A DNA stretch of 21,051 nucleotides from a virus. The stretch is from the IMG/VR virus record IMGVR_UViG_3300023179_000597, positions 1 to 21,051 of that record. The stretch is one strand, 5' to 3'. The notes below the pieces were generated by a model. That model did no database searches. It was not told the DNA's origin and saw only the letters and a list, made by a program, of their open reading frames with translations. Shown piece by piece: positions 1,131 to 5,635 of this stretch; positions within the stretch are counted from its first letter, which is position 1, and the number at the start of each line of letters is the position of its first letter. The position numbers and the translations under genes are program-made.

Positions 1131-2432
1131 ATGATCGAAGATTCTGATTTGGTAATCGAAACATCCAAACCTGTTAAAAAGCATAAAATCTTAATGCTTT
1201 CTGACCATCCACTCTGCACCTCTGGTGTAGGTGTGCAAGCAAGATTTCTTATTCAAGGTCTACTAAACACTGGACGGTATAGCTTTCGTTGTTTGGGTGG
1301 TGCAGTCAAACACCCAAGCTATGAAACAATCATGCTTAATCCAGACTTCGTGATTAAACCTGTTGATGGTTTTGGCAACCACGAAATCATTCGCAATATC
1401 TTGATTAATGAACGTCCTGACGCTGTGCTTCTTTTCACCGACCCAAGACAGTTTTTCTGGCTTTGGGATATCGAAGACGAGATTCATCAAATCTGTCCAA
1501 TCACTTATTGGCACGTTTGGGACAATGATCCGTACCCAGACTACAACGACGTATGGTACAAGTCCACAGACCTTATCAACTGCCTTTCATATAAAACATA
1601 TGAAATGGTGAAGTCAAAGTTCCCAGAACGTACAAACTATATTCCACATGCCTTCCCAAAGGAAGTTTATTTCCCACTTCCAGAACAAACAAAGGCAGAT
1701 CTTCGCAAGAAGAACTTTGGAGATCGTGCAGATTGGTTTGTTGGTACATGGGTTAATCGTAATGCAACCCGCAAGATGCCAAACGATGTTCTTAATGCAT
1801 GGCGAGTGTTCCTTGATCGTCTACAAGCCGAAGAAGGCCATCGCAAGGCTGTACTAATCATGCATACAGACCCAAACGATGTTGAAGGTCCAAACCTTAT
1901 CGCTGTCACAGAAAAGCTTGGGATTAATGAGCATGTTATGTTTTCAACCCAAAAGGTTGATTTTAACGATATGAACGCTCTTTACAACATCACGGATTTT
2001 ACGGTTAACGTTTCCAAGGCCGAAGGATTTGGTTTAGCCACACTGTCTGCCATGATGGCTGGCAAGCCTATTATTGCTCTTAAAACAGGTGGTTTAACTC
2101 GTCAAGTTGTCGATCATCGTGACGGTTCAGAACATGGCGTAGCTATTGAACCAGCAGCACGAACCTTGGTTGGTTCACAAGCTGTTCCTTACATTTACGA
2201 CGATCACGTAAACTATCTTGACGTTGCCGAAGCTTATTGGAAGCTTTACAAGATGACTCCCGAAGAACGAAAAGCTTTGTTTGAAAAGAACATTGCTTAT
2301 TGTGATTTTGAGTTCAGTTATGAAAACATGATTAAGCAATGGGACGAAACATTGGATAAGTGCATCAGTGAATGGAAAACTAACAAACCAAAGAGTTGGA
2401 CATGTGAACAACTTCGCCCGTTTGGTAAATGA
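1131..2432 (+). CDS. GT-B fold glycosyltransferase (GT4/group 1-like)
   Basis: This 433-residue protein looks like a two-domain GT-B glycosyltransferase. The N-terminal domain has 'ILMLSDHPLCTSGVG' (about 20-34) with the glycine-rich loop after the first strand. The C-terminal domain has 'FVGTWVNRNATRKMPNDV' (about 203-220) and the nucleotide-sugar loop 'AEGFGLATLSAMMAGKPII' (about 297-315). E298 fits the first glutamate of the EX7E motif, but the second position is S306, so the motif is incomplete. GGAG at 1119-1122, 8 bases before the ATG, supports the start. It uses more C-ending codons than the genes around it. It probably transfers a sugar made by the upstream enzymes; acceptor (DNA base, virion protein or host surface) is unknown. 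It is followed by a relic of the start of the second glycosyltransferase. Confidence 0.78.
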   Translation: MIEDSDLVIETSKPVKKHKILMLSDHPLCTSGVGVQARFLIQGLLNTGRYSFRCLGGAVKHPSYETIMLNPDFVIKPVDGFGNHEIIRNILINERPDAVLLFTDPRQFFWLWDIEDEIHQICPITYWHVWDNDPYPDYNDVWYKSTDLINCLSYKTYEMVKSKFPERTNYIPHAFPKEVYFPLPEQTKADLRKKNFGDRADWFVGTWVNRNATRKMPNDVLNAWRVFLDRLQAEEGHRKAVLIMHTDPNDVEGPNLIAVTEKLGINEHVMFSTQKVDFNDMNALYNITDFTVNVSKAEGFGLATLSAMMAGKPIIALKTGGLTRQVVDHRDGSEHGVAIEPAARTLVGSQAVPYIYDDHVNYLDVAEAYWKLYKMTPEERKALFEKNIAYCDFEFSYENMIKQWDETLDKCISEWKTNKPKSWTCEQLRPFGK

Positions 2433-2450
2433 TAGGAAGGCTATAAGACA

Positions 2451-2483
2451 ATGAAATCTGTACTACTACGTGCTCCACTACTT
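2451..2483 (+). repeat. Duplicated coding tract, copy 1 (MKSVLLRAPLL)
   Basis: This 33-base tract encodes the same 11 residues as 3397-3429. It differs at 12 of 33 bases, every difference being synonymous. Apart from the fixed ATG and the shared AAA, all nine codons differ. A second, shorter match lies at 2535-2549 (GYGVH in the same frame), 13 of 15 bases identical to 3439-3453. Confidence 0.85.
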
Positions 2484-2492
2484 ACAAAATAA
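2451..2492 (+). pseudogene. Stranded 5' end of the second glycosyltransferase gene (13-codon mini-ORF)
   Basis: ATG at 2451 opens a 13-codon frame reading MKSVLLRAPLLTK and stopping at 2490-2492. The first 11 residues are identical to the start of the intact glycosyltransferase at 3397. The nine codons after ATG-AAA are all different from, but synonymous with, those downstream. An AGGAAGG ribosome binding site sits at about 2434-2440. This looks like the original start of the glycosyltransferase, cut off from its body by the endonuclease element. It may still be translated as a leader peptide; its stop lies 6 bases before the hairpin that hides the endonuclease ribosome site. Confidence 0.8.
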
Positions 2493-2498
2493 TATATC

Positions 2499-2552
2499 TG
2501 TGTGAACTCCGTAACCACCAACTACTTATTGGAAGGATATGGAGTTCATACA
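2499..2552 (+). promoter_or_regulatory. RBS-sequestering hairpin upstream of the endonuclease gene
   Basis: The arms 2499-2521 and 2529-2552 pair in about 21 base pairs around a 7-base loop (2522-2528). The heart is GAACTCC (2504-2510) against GGAGTTC (2541-2547), with 2499-2513 pairing continuously to 2538-2552 including two G-U pairs. One A-A mismatch and a small internal loop interrupt the upper stem. The GGAG Shine-Dalgarno (2541-2544) and the upstream GGAAGG (2531-2536) are both in the 3' arm, and the start codon follows directly at 2553. The 5' arm begins after an AT-rich TAATATAT (2490-2497) that could be a phage late promoter core. T4 endonuclease genes such as I-TevI are known to be silenced by this kind of structure. 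Confidence 0.8.
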
Positions 2553-3395
2553 ATGAGCAATAAAGCTAAAAAGAGAGTCGATAATAGACCAGCATTATCT
2601 CAAAACCTAGTTGATGGTTTTTTAGATTGTCAGTTGTGCAATCAGAAAAAAAGATGGAAAGGTGGAAGTTTTACCCGCCATTTACAATCCGTTCATCAAC
2701 TCACAACTTCTGCTTACTATATTCAAATTTATGGCAACAACTGGAAAAGTTGTTTGTGTGGATGCGGCGAGGAAACAGCATGGGAATCCCGTGAAGGATA
2801 TTACAAGGGATACATATCTGGTCACAACTATCGAGGTAAAACTAAAGAAACAGATTTGACTGTGGCTTTAAGAACGACCAAAATGATTCAGAATGAAAAG
2901 TGGCTAGAATCAACTTTTAAAAAAGGCCAGAAAGCTTGGAATAAATGTTCAACTGATGTTGAATATTTACAAAAGCTTTTCAAAAGAACGAAACTCAGCC
3001 TAAAAACTTCCGGTATCAAAAAAGGAAAATACGAATCTCAGAAGTCTGGGATTTTATTCTATTATGATAGTGGTTGGGAACTAGAGAGAATGAAGTTTTA
3101 TGACGCCGAGCCGTCGATATCCTCATGGAGTAGATGCGATGATTTGATCCCGTATATCGACACAAACGGACAAAAGAGACATTATAATCCAGATTTTATC
3201 ATAAAATATGGAGAAGGTAAAATCAGAATAGAAGAAATAAAAGGTGGCAGATTTGGAGAATCTACACACTGTAAGTTACAAGCTGCTAATGAATATTACA
3301 AGAATATTGGATATGAATACATTGTGATTACTAAGAGACAAGATTCTTTTATTCAAGTACCACTAGATTTATTCCTACAAAAGAAAGAAGTTTAA
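2553..3395 (+). CDS. Zinc-finger PD-(D/E)XK homing-endonuclease-like protein
   Basis: Translation from ATG 2553 gives 280 residues. The frame also has a GTG at 2502, but that lies in the 5' arm of the hairpin, while ATG 2553 has GGAG 8 bases upstream. The N-terminus has a Ros/MucR-like zinc finger: C26-x2-C29 and H43-x4-H48, followed by 'QLTTSAYYIQIYG'. Then comes a cysteine cluster 'CLCGCGEET' (C67, C69, C71) leading into 'YISGHNYRGK', a pattern seen in DNA-binding regions of phage homing endonucleases. The C-terminal half has E176 in 'GWELERM', P213-D214 in 'YNPDFII' and E228-x-K230 in 'IEEIKG', as in PD-(D/E)XK nucleases. It probably cuts the uninterrupted glycosyltransferase gene to spread the element. 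Cleavage site and activity are inferred. Its stop is 1 base before the next ATG. Confidence 0.78.
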   Translation: MSNKAKKRVDNRPALSQNLVDGFLDCQLCNQKKRWKGGSFTRHLQSVHQLTTSAYYIQIYGNNWKSCLCGCGEETAWESREGYYKGYISGHNYRGKTKETDLTVALRTTKMIQNEKWLESTFKKGQKAWNKCSTDVEYLQKLFKRTKLSLKTSGIKKGKYESQKSGILFYYDSGWELERMKFYDAEPSISSWSRCDDLIPYIDTNGQKRHYNPDFIIKYGEGKIRIEEIKGGRFGESTHCKLQAANEYYKNIGYEYIVITKRQDSFIQVPLDLFLQKKEV

Positions 3396-3396
3396 T

Positions 3397-3429
3397 ATGA
3401 AATCAGTTCTTTTAAGAGCACCTTTGTTG
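3397..3429 (+). repeat. Duplicated coding tract, copy 2 (MKSVLLRAPLL, synonymously recoded)
   Basis: This is the start of the intact glycosyltransferase gene and the partner of 2451-2483. The recoded copy uses TTA, TTG and AGA where the relic uses CTA, CTT and CGT, so its codon style is closer to the AT-rich endonuclease gene than to the rest of the glycosyltransferase. Confidence 0.85.
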
Positions 3430-4581
3430 GTTCATGCAGGCTATGGTGTTCATGCCCGTCAAATCGCCCGCTGGCTTTTTCGTGTGGCAACAGAAACACA
3501 TCAACTAGACATTACCACAGAACCACTCGGTTGGGGTAAAACTCATATGATTGTTGATACTGAAGCGGAAGATGGTCTTATTGGCCAGATTCTTCAAGCA
3601 TCAGGAAACAAAAAGAACTTTTACGATGTAACCATTCAGCTTCAACTGCCAAACGAATGGAATCCTTTCCTTGGAACGTTTAATGTTGGAGTAACAGCAG
3701 GTGTAGAAACTGACAAATGCAATCCAGCTTGGATCGATTGCATCAACCGTATGGATATGGTTATTGTTCCAAGCGAGTTTACAAAGCAAACTTTTCTAAA
3801 CACAGGGGAAGTAACTGTTCCTATCGTTGTTGTACCAGAAAGCTTCCCAGATAGCTTACTCTCTGACGCTATTAGTTTGGATCTTGGCTTGACAACAAAG
3901 TTTAACTTTCTAGTTGTTGGTCAGTTAACTGGTAACAACACAGAAAATGATCGTAAAAATTTAGCTTACACGATGAAATGGTTGGCAGAAACGTTTGCTG
4001 ATTGTCCCGACGTTGGTATTGTTGTTAAAACAAATTCTGGGGCACAAACACAACTCGACAAGCAAAACATTAGGAATATTTTTTCTAAATTGGTTGAAGA
4101 AGTTGTTGGACCCAAGAACAAGGGACCAAAGTTTTATCTTCTTCACGGTCATATGTCAGATGAAGAAATGCATGGACTTTATACACATCCAGACATAAAG
4201 GCTCTTGTAACGTTTACTCACGGCGAAGGATATGGTTTACCTATCATAGAAGCTGCCGCTTGCGATCTTCCAGTTATTGCAACAAACTGGAGCGGTCACT
4301 TAGAATTCCTTAGACATGGAAGATTTATTCCTGTCGAATATAACCTAATGACTATTCCAGAATCTAGAGTTGACAATCAAATATTCGTAAAGGATACGAA
4401 ATGGGCAAATCCTGTTGAGTTTGATGCAAAACAAAGATTGAAGAAGTTTTATTCTGGTGCTCAGATTCCAAAACAATGGGCAACAGAGCTTGGAAAAAAA
4501 ATTCGAGAACATTATTGTTTTGATGCTGTTGCTCGTATTTATTCTGAAACATTAGATGAGCAATTGAAAGAAAACAAATGA
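3397..4581 (+). CDS. GT-B fold glycosyltransferase with complete EX7E motif (GT4/group 1-like)
   Basis: This 394-residue protein starts 'MKSVLLRAPLLVHAGYGVHARQ', cut here as first strand plus glycine loop of a GT-B N-terminal domain. The C-terminal domain has 'FLVVGQLTGNNTENDRKNL' (about 171-189) and the donor-binding loop 'HGEGYGLPIIEAAACDLPVIA' region with E277 and E285 forming a full EX7E motif, unlike the neighbouring glycosyltransferase. The start lies 1 base after the endonuclease stop, with only a weak purine-rich AAGAAAGAAG upstream, so translation may depend on coupling or on a transcript starting nearby. The native ribosome site (about 2434-2440) is stranded upstream with the relic. 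The next gene overlaps the stop as ATGA. Donor and acceptor are unknown; the upstream sugar genes suggest a modified sugar. Confidence 0.8.
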   Translation: MKSVLLRAPLLVHAGYGVHARQIARWLFRVATETHQLDITTEPLGWGKTHMIVDTEAEDGLIGQILQASGNKKNFYDVTIQLQLPNEWNPFLGTFNVGVTAGVETDKCNPAWIDCINRMDMVIVPSEFTKQTFLNTGEVTVPIVVVPESFPDSLLSDAISLDLGLTTKFNFLVVGQLTGNNTENDRKNLAYTMKWLAETFADCPDVGIVVKTNSGAQTQLDKQNIRNIFSKLVEEVVGPKNKGPKFYLLHGHMSDEEMHGLYTHPDIKALVTFTHGEGYGLPIIEAAACDLPVIATNWSGHLEFLRHGRFIPVEYNLMTIPESRVDNQIFVKDTKWANPVEFDAKQRLKKFYSGAQIPKQWATELGKKIREHYCFDAVARIYSETLDEQLKENK

Positions 4582-4901
4582 TAGGTTATTTATTAGCGTT
4601 AATATTAATAATTGCTTTAGTATTTGTAGTTTATCATTCAATTAGATGGGCCAAGATTATTTTTATAGTAGAAGATGATCTTGCTGATGCAATTGAGATT
4701 CATGAAAGAACATTGAAAACATTAGAAGATATCGTTAAAACTCCGATGTTTTTTGATAATCCACAAACAAAAGCAGCAGTTGACGAAGCCATGGAAAATG
4801 TAAAAATGTGTCAGACAGCGACACATAAGCTTATTCAGAATTTTACACAACGTAGCAAGCAACGTTACATAAGGCTTGTGGATGAAGAAGAAGCGGAATG
4901 A
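4578..4901 (+). CDS. Small one-pass membrane protein of unknown function
   Basis: The 107-residue product begins with one hydrophobic segment (about residues 2-20, 'IGYLLALILIIALVFVVYH'), followed by a short basic/aromatic stretch and a helical, charged C-terminal region of about 75 residues that looks amphipathic and may be a coiled coil. The likely topology is an N-terminal anchor with the soluble domain in the cytoplasm. It overlaps the glycosyltransferase stop and the sigma-factor start by ATGA, so it belongs to the same translation unit. No family is recognised. It could be a virion, inner-membrane or lysis-control protein; nothing in the sequence decides between these. Confidence 0.75.
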   Translation: MIGYLLALILIIALVFVVYHSIRWAKIIFIVEDDLADAIEIHERTLKTLEDIVKTPMFFDNPQTKAAVDEAMENVKMCQTATHKLIQNFTQRSKQRYIRLVDEEEAE

Positions 4902-5635
4902 CTCCAACAGGTAAAAAGCTTATCAAACGTAAGCCAAAAGGCGGAGCTTCACCACAAGAATTTTATTTCAACGCTAATACTCAAAAAGCTATTGTTGATT
5001 ATAAAGCCGAAACAATTCCTTCCAAGCGAAATGAAATATATGTGAATGAGATACTTCCAGCTTTCAATAAGCTTGTAGAAAATTTAATCAACGTATATGG
5101 TTTTCAGATTCAGTATGAAAGCAAGGCAGATTTACAAAATGAATGCATTGAGTTTTTATATGGTGTAATTACAAAATTTGATGCAAGTAAAGGTACCAAA
5201 GCATTTTCTTATTTCAATGTTGTTGCAAAACATTGGCTTATCATTAAAAGCAAACAAAGCGTTCGCAATATTCATGTGTTTACTTCGATTGATGACACAG
5301 AAGCTTTGTCGCAACATGATTTAGAGACAATAGAAAGCCACAGCATTTCACCTTCTCCAGAAGAAAGCTTGGTTGATGAATGCGATCATCAAAAGATTAA
5401 AACAATATTAGAGTTTATTTCTTCAAATACTGTAACCGAGAACGAAATCGAATGTCTTAAAGGAATCAAAATGTTATTCGACAATGTTAACGAACTTGAT
5501 TTTCTTAACAAACGAGCCATAATGCTTTATTTAAGAGAAATAACCAATCTTTCTCCAAAACAATTATCTGTTGTACTTTCACTTATGAAACGATACTACA
5601 AGTCCGCTAAAGAAGAATATAACATAAATCAGTAA
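4898..5635 (+). CDS. 55: Late-transcription sigma factor, T4 gp55-like
   Basis: This 245-residue protein has a sigma region 2-like block at about residues 78-120: 'DLQNECIEFLYGVITKFD' then 'GTKAFSYFNVVAKHWLI', with the F-x-Y-F pattern followed by an aromatic/basic helix that is typical of gp55 and of minimal sigma-70 relatives. In T4, gp55 replaces the host sigma on RNA polymerase and recognises the short late-promoter core. This product is longer than T4 gp55 (about 185 residues), with an extended C-terminal helical part (about 165-245) and no obvious region 4 helix-turn-helix. It lies directly before the tail genes it would be expected to switch on. Start chosen by the ATGA overlap with the membrane-protein gene. 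Confidence 0.78.
   Translation: MTPTGKKLIKRKPKGGASPQEFYFNANTQKAIVDYKAETIPSKRNEIYVNEILPAFNKLVENLINVYGFQIQYESKADLQNECIEFLYGVITKFDASKGTKAFSYFNVVAKHWLIIKSKQSVRNIHVFTSIDDTEALSQHDLETIESHSISPSPEESLVDECDHQKIKTILEFISSNTVTENEIECLKGIKMLFDNVNELDFLNKRAIMLYLREITNLSPKQLSVVLSLMKRYYKSAKEEYNINQ

What the first reader, a model, noticed from the sequence alone, without database searches (positions are those of the whole stretch)
2451..3453. Endonuclease element sits between two copies of a gene start, with every degenerate codon synonymously changed
The first 11 residues of the glycosyltransferase at 3397 are also encoded at 2451-2483, upstream of the endonuclease gene. All nine codons after ATG-AAA differ, and all are synonymous (12 of 33 bases). 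A simple tandem duplication would keep bases, and neutral drift would change residues. The pattern fits an element that brings its own recoded copy of the target gene's 5' end, restoring the protein while removing the endonuclease recognition site: a natural counterpart of a recoded rescue. Allomyces mitochondrial atp6 is a known 3'-end parallel, where an endonuclease element carries a replacement gene end. An alternative is capture of a divergent homologue's gene start by recombination. Codons after about 3440 return to the relic's style, suggesting a junction there.
Basis: partly seen in the sequence, partly recalled or inferred. Interest (0 to 1): 0.88.

Follow-up and report, generated by a model that had tools for sequence, protein, structure and literature searches.

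The report
Homing endonuclease displaced a gene's start
In a virus of bacteria, a selfish DNA-cutting gene sits on top of the start of a sugar-transfer gene, with the old start left behind upstream and a working start borrowed from another virus's version of the gene downstream; the cutter's own control region also carries two mirror-image copies of a piece of that gene.

Summary
In detail: codons 1-11 of the glycosyltransferase (GT2, 3397) occur also at 2451-2483, with all nine degenerate codons synonymously different. Element-free relatives show that 2451 is the displaced original start, with the original ribosome-binding context. The endonuclease between the copies combines an N-terminal zinc module, shared with other phage homing-type endonucleases, with a TnsA-like nuclease whose active site is intact.

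The 'recoded rescue' is not needed. The working start is a natural allele: its first 26 bases equal those of a distant phage (L052), and from about codon 8 the gene matches the closest relative again. Whether the captured start also protects against the endonuclease is untested.

New here: the endonuclease's leader is an 18-bp inverted repeat whose arms both encode GT2 codons 15-20 (GYGVHT). In 4.25 million scanned positions of related sequence nothing but GT2 scores as high. The hairpin hides the endonuclease's ribosome-binding site. The likeliest reading is a target-like operator plus translational hairpin, as in T4 homing endonucleases.

Verdict: a 5'-end, phage counterpart of the Allomyces/Glomus gene-end replacements; new variant of a known kind, resting on one contig.

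The parts
1131..2432 (+). GT1, GT4-family glycosyltransferase gene upstream; its end and intergenic context are shared with element-free relatives
   Evidence: Pfam PF00534 1e-11; 88% DNA identity to L001 up to 2467
2433..2450 (+). original GT2 ribosome-binding context (TAGGAAGGCTATAAGACA), now in front of the relic
   Evidence: same context before the single GT2 start in L001, L005, L006, L007 and others
2451..2492 (+). relic of the native GT2 start: codons 1-11 (possibly 12), then AAA TAA, a 13-codon mini-ORF MKSVLLRAPLLTK*
   Evidence: direct reading; 27-29/33 identity to element-free starts L004, L006-L008, L010, L011
2499..2516 (-). left arm of the inverted repeat; on the - strand reads GGTTACGGAGTTCACACA = GYGVHT = GT2 codons 15-20
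   Evidence: profile score 24.9 bits, next best - strand hit in the window 3.5
2535..2552 (+). right arm GGATATGGAGTTCATACA = GYGVHT = GT2 codons 15-20, directly before the endonuclease ATG and covering its Shine-Dalgarno-like bases
   Evidence: 0/2000 shuffles reach its score; 24.1 bits, next best + strand hit in the window 5.7 apart from GT2 itself
2499..2552 (+). hairpin predicted to sequester the endonuclease ribosome-binding site (-28.9 kcal/mol in a 90-nt fold)
   Evidence: hairpins directly before the ATG also in relatives L145, L150, L158, L168, L171
2553..3395 (+). free-standing homing-type endonuclease, 280 aa
2628..2825 (+). N-terminal zinc module (C-x2-C ... H-x4-H ... CxCGCG ... 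GH)
   Evidence: C26 C29 H43 H48 C67 C69 C71 H91 invariant in alignment A1 with Vsr-like and HNH-type relatives
3012..3338 (+). TnsA-like PD-(D/E)XK nuclease domain, catalytic residues E176, D214, E228/K230 kept
   Evidence: invariant in A2 and A3; PF08722 1.6e-5; fold match to TnsA 1f1z/1t0f
3393..3399 (+). endonuclease stop (TAA 3393-3395) one base from the GT2 ATG (3397): probable translational coupling
   Evidence: direct reading; coupling is inferred
3397..3422 (+). captured foreign start of GT2 (codons 1-8 and part of 9); crossover somewhere in 3414-3429
   Evidence: 26/26 identical to L052; codons 4-7 GTT CTT TTA AGA as in L018, L052, L053 and unlike the other near relatives
3397..4581 (+). 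GT2, functional GT4-family glycosyltransferase gene, 394 aa
   Evidence: Pfam PF13692 1.3e-8; 92% aa identity to L001
3439..3456 (+). GT2 codons 15-20 (GYGVHA), the conserved motif mimicked by both hairpin arms; predicted recognition element
   Evidence: 29.4 bits in the 18-nt profile; the role as recognition site is inferred

Best explanation
A free-standing homing endonuclease has moved into the start of the phage glycosyltransferase gene GT2. The endonuclease cuts (inferred) the GT2 start of element-free phages near codons 12-20. One side of the break was repaired by homology inside GT2, copying in the donor's endonuclease together with the donor's own, divergent GT2 start (codons 1 to about 8). 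The other side was joined illegitimately, so the resident start remains as a truncated relic upstream. The result keeps the GT2 protein unchanged and places its translation start one base after the endonuclease stop. The endonuclease's own expression is restrained by a leader hairpin that hides its ribosome-binding site. Both hairpin arms copy GT2 codons 15-20, so they probably also serve as a target-like operator to which the endonuclease binds. Shown here: relic, replacement, foreign tract, junction, domain make-up, hairpin and its GT2 identity. Inferred: cutting, the site, homing, the one-sided repair, operator function, coupling.
For: Single GT2 start directly after GT1 in 12 near relatives and in most of 66 further contigs; relic has native context and native-type codons (GTA at codon 4 in all near relatives but L018), working copy has GTT CTT TTA AGA of L018/L052/L053; working copy returns to L001 type from codon 7-8; excess synonymous change in codons 3-9 versus the rest of the gene against L010 (7/7 vs 27/85, p = 0.0006) and L011 (p = 0.003); nuclease domain matches TnsA by profile and by fold with catalytic residues intact; N-terminal module shared with EDxHD/Vsr-type and HNH-type phage endonucleases, one of them between intein-like gene halves (L150); near relatives L004 and L018 carry other TnsA-like nucleases, with NUMOD3 motifs in L018's; hairpin arms match GT2 codons 15-20, no non-GT2 hit at their score in 3.07 million positions nor at >= 20 bits in a further 1.18 million. 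Precedents: T4 one-sided illegitimate break repair at microhomologies (PMC2988022), I-TevI operator with 15/20 identity to its homing site and ribosome-site hairpins before T4 homing endonucleases (PMC2988022).
Against: The element is known from one contig; no second copy and no close relative of the endonuclease in viral contigs or prokaryote genomes. No donor phage with the endonuclease upstream of an L052-type GT2 was found. The closest relative L001 has a mosaic start (bases 1-17 as the relic, from about base 18 as the working copy), so the resident allele is not cleanly known. The foreign tract is short (18-26 bases), and against single relatives other than L007, L010 and L011 the excess is not significant. 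Activity and site of the endonuclease are untested.
Confidence: 0.72

Rival explanations
1. Recoded rescue: the element carries a copy of the GT2 start whose synonymous differences exist because they destroy the endonuclease site, so the element restores the protein while making its carrier immune.
For: All nine degenerate codons differ; an endonuclease beside an intact target gene needs some difference in the site; the relic breaks off at codon 11-12, inside the altered stretch.
Against: The start is an existing allele of other phages (26/26 bases in L052), so no recoding event is needed; complete synonymous replacement occurs in 7.5% of natural pairs; the only target-like motif found in the element (codons 15-20) is undamaged in the working gene. 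Protection by the captured allele remains possible.
Confidence: 0.2
2. The endonuclease arrived by ordinary recombination between two phages, and the upstream copy is the passenger: the working start is the resident one and the relic came with the element.
For: From codon 8 on, the working copy matches the closest relative L001; L001 bases 19-45 resemble the working copy, not the relic.
Against: The relic has the native intergenic context continuous with GT1 and native-type codons 3-7, while codons 4-7 of the working copy are of the L018/L052 type.
Confidence: 0.15
3. The hairpin arms are not a regulatory mimic but fossils: pieces of GT2 codons 15-20 left in both orientations by repeated breakage and faulty repair at the GT2 start. 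(This is a rival for the leader only, not for the displaced start.)
For: The right arm is in frame with the relic and in the right order (codons 1-12, then 15-20); an 8-base repeat ACTACTTA lies in the relic end and the loop; the arms differ only at three third-codon positions, all synonymous.
Against: The arms stop sharply at codons 15-20, form a near-perfect stem over the ribosome-binding site, and several related endonucleases also have hairpins there; codon 20 is ACA (Thr) in both arms, unlike the near relatives.
Confidence: 0.35
4. Assembly chimera: two phage populations were joined at the conserved GT2 start.
For: Single contig; IMG/VR fragment of 21 kb.
Against: Relic and working copy share only short exact runs (73% identity over 26 nt); the relic-leader boundary has no shared long word; the open frames are intact; the right flank is confirmed from 3891 at 99% identity in a contig of another data set (L014).
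Confidence: 0.07

Closest known systems
Endonuclease elements that replace the 3' end of mitochondrial genes (Allomyces atp6; Glomus atp6, atp9, cox2, nad3) (PMC3630166)
   Same: Endonuclease gene plus a foreign replacement gene end, native end left as a displaced relic; nucleotide-divergent but protein-similar copies (Glomus atp6: 63.5% nt, 91% aa)
   Different: Those replace C-terminal ends with LAGLIDADG or GIY-YIG enzymes in mitochondria; here the 5' end of a phage gene is replaced, by a TnsA-like enzyme, and the tract is only 18-30 bases
Free-standing T4 homing endonucleases and intronless homing (SegF, SegG, MobE) (PMC2988022)
   Same: Intergenic endonuclease next to a conserved gene; co-converted flanks; leader hairpins hiding the ribosome-binding site (mobE, segB)
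   Different: T4 enzymes are GIY-YIG or HNH and their cut sites lie hundreds of bases away or more; a relic of the target gene's start is not described in the text read
I-TevI autoregulatory operator (PMC2988022)
   Same: Sequence before the endonuclease gene resembles the target (15/20 bases for I-TevI; 14/18 and 12/18 here against the resident GT2, 16/18 against the nearest GT2 alleles)
   Different: Here two inverted copies that also form the ribosome-site hairpin; binding untested; target not determined
EDxHD/Vsr-type and HNH-type phage endonucleases sharing the N-terminal zinc module (L119, L134, L141; L136, L139)
   Same: Same N-terminal C2-H2 + CxCGCG...GH module
   Different: Different nuclease domain; here TnsA-like
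TnsA and phage gp4/head-closure nucleases
   Same: Nuclease fold and catalytic residues (fold match 1f1z; phrog_218 1.8e-14)
   Different: No transposon genes nearby; extra N-terminal zinc module; not in a head-gene context

Membership tests
Homing endonuclease (free-standing, phage) | Intact nuclease domain of a homing-associated or site-specific class | tested here: met
   TnsA-like PD-(D/E)XK, E/D/E-K invariant; fold match to TnsA; PF08722 E 1.6e-5 but 0.7 bits under the curated cut-off
Homing endonuclease (free-standing, phage) | DNA-binding module shared with known homing endonuclease types | tested here: met
   N-terminal module shared with Vsr-like and HNH-type phage enzymes; those are themselves assigned by sequence only
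Homing endonuclease (free-standing, phage) | Presence/absence polymorphism at a site in a conserved gene pair | tested here: met
   absent between GT1 and GT2 in the related contigs examined
Homing endonuclease (free-standing, phage) | Cuts the element-free allele and is inherited preferentially | not testable with these tools
   needs protein and mixed infection
Gene-end replacement element (Allomyces/Glomus type) | Displaced native gene end retained next to the endonuclease | tested here: met
   relic 2451-2483 in native context
Gene-end replacement element (Allomyces/Glomus type) | Replacement end of foreign origin, fused in frame to the resident gene | tested here: met
   codons 3-7 of L052/L018 type, L001 type from codon 7-8
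Gene-end replacement element (Allomyces/Glomus type) | Acts at the 3' end of a mitochondrial gene | tested here: not met
   5' end, phage gene: it works like these elements but is not filed as one of them
Recoded rescue / immunity copy | Synonymous changes that do not pre-exist as natural alleles | tested here: not met
   26/26 bases shared with L052
Recoded rescue / immunity copy | Endonuclease cuts the native but not the replacement start | not testable with these tools
   biochemistry needed
I-TevI-type autoregulatory operator | Sequence upstream of the endonuclease resembling its target | tested here: inconclusive
   resemblance to the target gene is strong, but the true target is unknown
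Group I intron or intein element | Self-splicing RNA or intein domains around the endonuclease | tested here: not met
   no Rfam intron in 2300-3600; no intein domain in the endonuclease or GT2

The most novel reading that the evidence does not exclude
A phage homing element that replaces the 5' end of its target gene and carries inverted mimics of its own target in its leader, so that one sequence acts as target, operator and ribosome-site hairpin, while the captured gene start makes the carrier immune and ties translation of the target gene to the endonuclease.
Probability: 0.25. Interest if true: 0.8.

Novelty: new variant of a known kind. Interest (0 to 1): 0.55.

Why it matters
Gene-end replacement by endonuclease elements is documented in fungal mitochondria at 3' ends; this is a 5' case in a phage, with both the native and the borrowed start preserved, so the event can be read directly. 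It shows how an endonuclease gene can enter a conserved gene without an intron or intein and without breaking it. The target-derived inverted repeat predicts the recognition motif (GGNTAYGGNGTNCAY), which makes an otherwise uncharacterised TnsA-like endonuclease directly testable.

Tried and rejected
No DNA match in named phages; named phages hold only distant GT2 and nuclease-domain relatives. Endonuclease scans of viral contigs and prokaryote genomes found no close relative. A pattern scan for the same inverted repeat found none elsewhere. Solved-structure sequence search gave only chance hits; the fold search succeeded. Gaps between GT1 and GT2 in L112 (an epimerase gene) and L241 (two unrelated ORFs) are not endonuclease insertions. 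Apparent split GT2 in L228, L229 and L251 was GT1 matching the GT2 query. Rfam: only a chance miRNA hit on the hairpin. Flank duplication like the window's was not seen in the other relatives of the N-terminal module; L144 scored high on an upstream/downstream protein-level match that I judged low-complexity and did not pursue. Leader arms of other family members did not clearly match their neighbouring genes. The whole-protein AlphaFold model is poor outside the nuclease domain. Considered and rejected: tandem duplication (the copies are of different allele types), group I intron, intein, neutral decay of the relic.
Full report
WHAT IS THERE. The window is a 21-kb IMG/VR virus fragment with glycan genes (epimerase-like, cupin, two GT4-type glycosyltransferases) followed by tail and baseplate-like genes. 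Between GT1 (1131-2432) and GT2 (3397-4581) lies an endonuclease gene (2553-3395). The first 11 codons of GT2 occur also at 2451-2483; 12 of 33 bases differ, all nine codons after ATG-AAA are changed, none changes the protein. The upstream copy ends in AAA TAA after codon 12.

WHICH COPY IS NATIVE. In the near relatives L001, L002, L004-L011, L013 and L018 (GT2 75-92% identical in protein) GT2 begins a few bases after the GT1 stop, with no endonuclease; most of 66 more distant contigs show the same close spacing, and a further alignment-based scan found no endonuclease at this place. The sequence before the upstream copy (TGATAGGAAGGCTATAAGACA-ATG) is the native context. The upstream copy agrees with L004, L006, L007, L008, L010 and L011 at 27-29 of 33 bases, the working copy at 21-22. 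All near relatives except L018 have GTA at codon 4, as the relic does; the working copy has GTT CTT TTA AGA at codons 4-7, as in L018, L052 and L053. So the relic is the native start and the working start is foreign.

IS THE RECODING SPECIAL? No. Between element-free starts with at least 7 comparable codons, 63% of synonymous codons differ on average and 63 of 842 pairs differ at every one. The working start is an existing allele: its first 26 bases are identical in L052, a phage whose GT1 is only 64% identical in protein. Against L010 the working copy has 7/7 changed codons in 3-9 but 27/85 in 12-110 (p = 0.0006); against L011 p = 0.003; against several other relatives the excess is not significant singly. 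From about codon 8 the copy follows L001. The tract is thus 18 to about 30 bases, with the crossover in 3414-3429. L001 is itself mosaic: bases 1-17 equal the relic, the next 16 differ from it at 8 positions (p = 0.0009). The gene start is evidently a place of repeated exchange.

THE ENDONUCLEASE. Residues 154-262 form a TnsA-like PD-(D/E)XK domain: Pfam PF08722 (E 1.6e-5, just under the curated cut-off), NCBIfam TnsA-like 2e-5, fold match to TnsA 1f1z/1t0f, with E176, D214, E228 and K230 invariant. The whole model is weak (pLDDT 53.6) but this domain is mostly at 80-90. Residues 26-91 are a zinc module with eight invariant Cys/His, shared with enzymes that carry Vsr/EDxHD-like (L119, L134, L141) or HNH-like (L136, L139) nuclease domains; one carrier (L150) sits between intein-like gene halves, the arrangement known as fractured genes. 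Near relatives L004 and L018 carry other TnsA-like nucleases, in L118 with NUMOD3 motifs (3e-16). This modular make-up fits a homing endonuclease.

THE LEADER. Directly before the endonuclease ATG lies an inverted repeat, 2499-2516 and 2535-2552, folding at -28.9 kcal/mol and hiding both GGAAGG and GGAG. Both arms, read on their own strand, encode GYGVHT, which is GT2 codons 15-20, and their three differences are all synonymous third positions. With a profile of 79 GT2 starts neither arm is matched in 2000 shuffles. In 3.07 million scanned positions every hit at the right arm's score is GT2 itself (two unclassified hits, in L003 and L109, are GT2 too); a further 1.18 million positions gave only GT2 even at 20 bits (L184 and L214 there are contig-end GT2 starts). 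These loci partly overlap, so the background is somewhat redundant. The arms are therefore derived from, or mimic, the target gene. Hairpins at this place occur in relatives L145, L150, L158, L168 and L171, but their arms do not clearly match neighbouring genes.

HOW IT MOST LIKELY WORKS. Shown: relic, foreign start, junction, domains, hairpin and its GT2 identity. Inferred: the endonuclease recognises the GT2 start around codons 12-20 and cuts it; repair used homology on the GT2 side, copying the donor's endonuclease and GT2 start, and an illegitimate join on the other side, leaving the relic. One-sided illegitimate repair with microhomology junctions is documented for T4 homing (PMC2988022). 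The endonuclease stop is one base from the GT2 start, so GT2 translation is probably coupled to it, which would penalise loss of the element. The leader would restrain the endonuclease in two ways known from T4: hiding the ribosome-binding site, and acting as a target-like operator (I-TevI: 15/20 identity to its homing site; PMC2988022). The alternative that the arms are fossils of earlier breaks is weighted at 0.35.

COMPARISON. The nearest known cases are endonuclease elements that replace 3' gene ends in fungal mitochondria, where native and inserted ends of Glomus atp6 share 63.5% of bases and 91% of residues (PMC3630166). The phage case acts at the 5' end. Searches of open papers found no 5' counterpart and no TnsA-like homing endonuclease, but this search was limited.

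LIMITS. One contig, no donor, no second copy, no activity data. A chimeric assembly is unlikely (no long shared words between the copies; right flank confirmed from 3891 by L014 at 99%) but is not excluded.

Noticed in passing
window 2499-2552: Leader hairpin of the endonuclease whose two arms both encode GT2 codons 15-20 in opposite orientations; became part of the main finding.
   Followed up: yes
L001 6001-6045: The closest element-free relative has a mosaic GT2 start: first 17 bases as the relic, from about base 18 as the working copy. It could be a recombinant or a past loss of the element by recombination between the two starts.
   Followed up: partly
L158 around 3986-4891; L171 around 1061-1951: Related endonuclease genes behind tail-tube-like genes are flanked by exact direct repeats of 18 and 17 bases: leader sequence repeated just after the endonuclease stop.
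   Followed up: partly
L119, L134, L141, L136, L139, window 2628-2825: One N-terminal zinc module is combined with three different nuclease types (Vsr/EDxHD-like, HNH-like, TnsA-like).
   Followed up: partly
L150 3082-5300: An endonuclease with this N-terminal module lies between the two halves of an intein-like split in a ribonucleotide-reductase-like gene (fractured-gene arrangement).
   Followed up: no
L118 883-1863 and L116 1477-2457 (-): Near relatives L018 and L004 carry closely similar 327-aa TnsA-like nucleases behind the same kind of upstream gene; L118 has NUMOD3 motifs, and a small gp4-like nuclease lies about 2 kb away in both phages.
   Followed up: partly
L144 3873-5721: A protein-level similarity between upstream and downstream flanks of the endonuclease (VLINILIRKLMLFF / LIINVILRRINLYF, z 8.3), probably low complexity but unexplained.
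   Followed up: no
window 4898-5635: ORF with weak similarity to late sigma transcription factors (phrog_234, E 1.4e-4) just downstream of the glycan genes.
   Followed up: no
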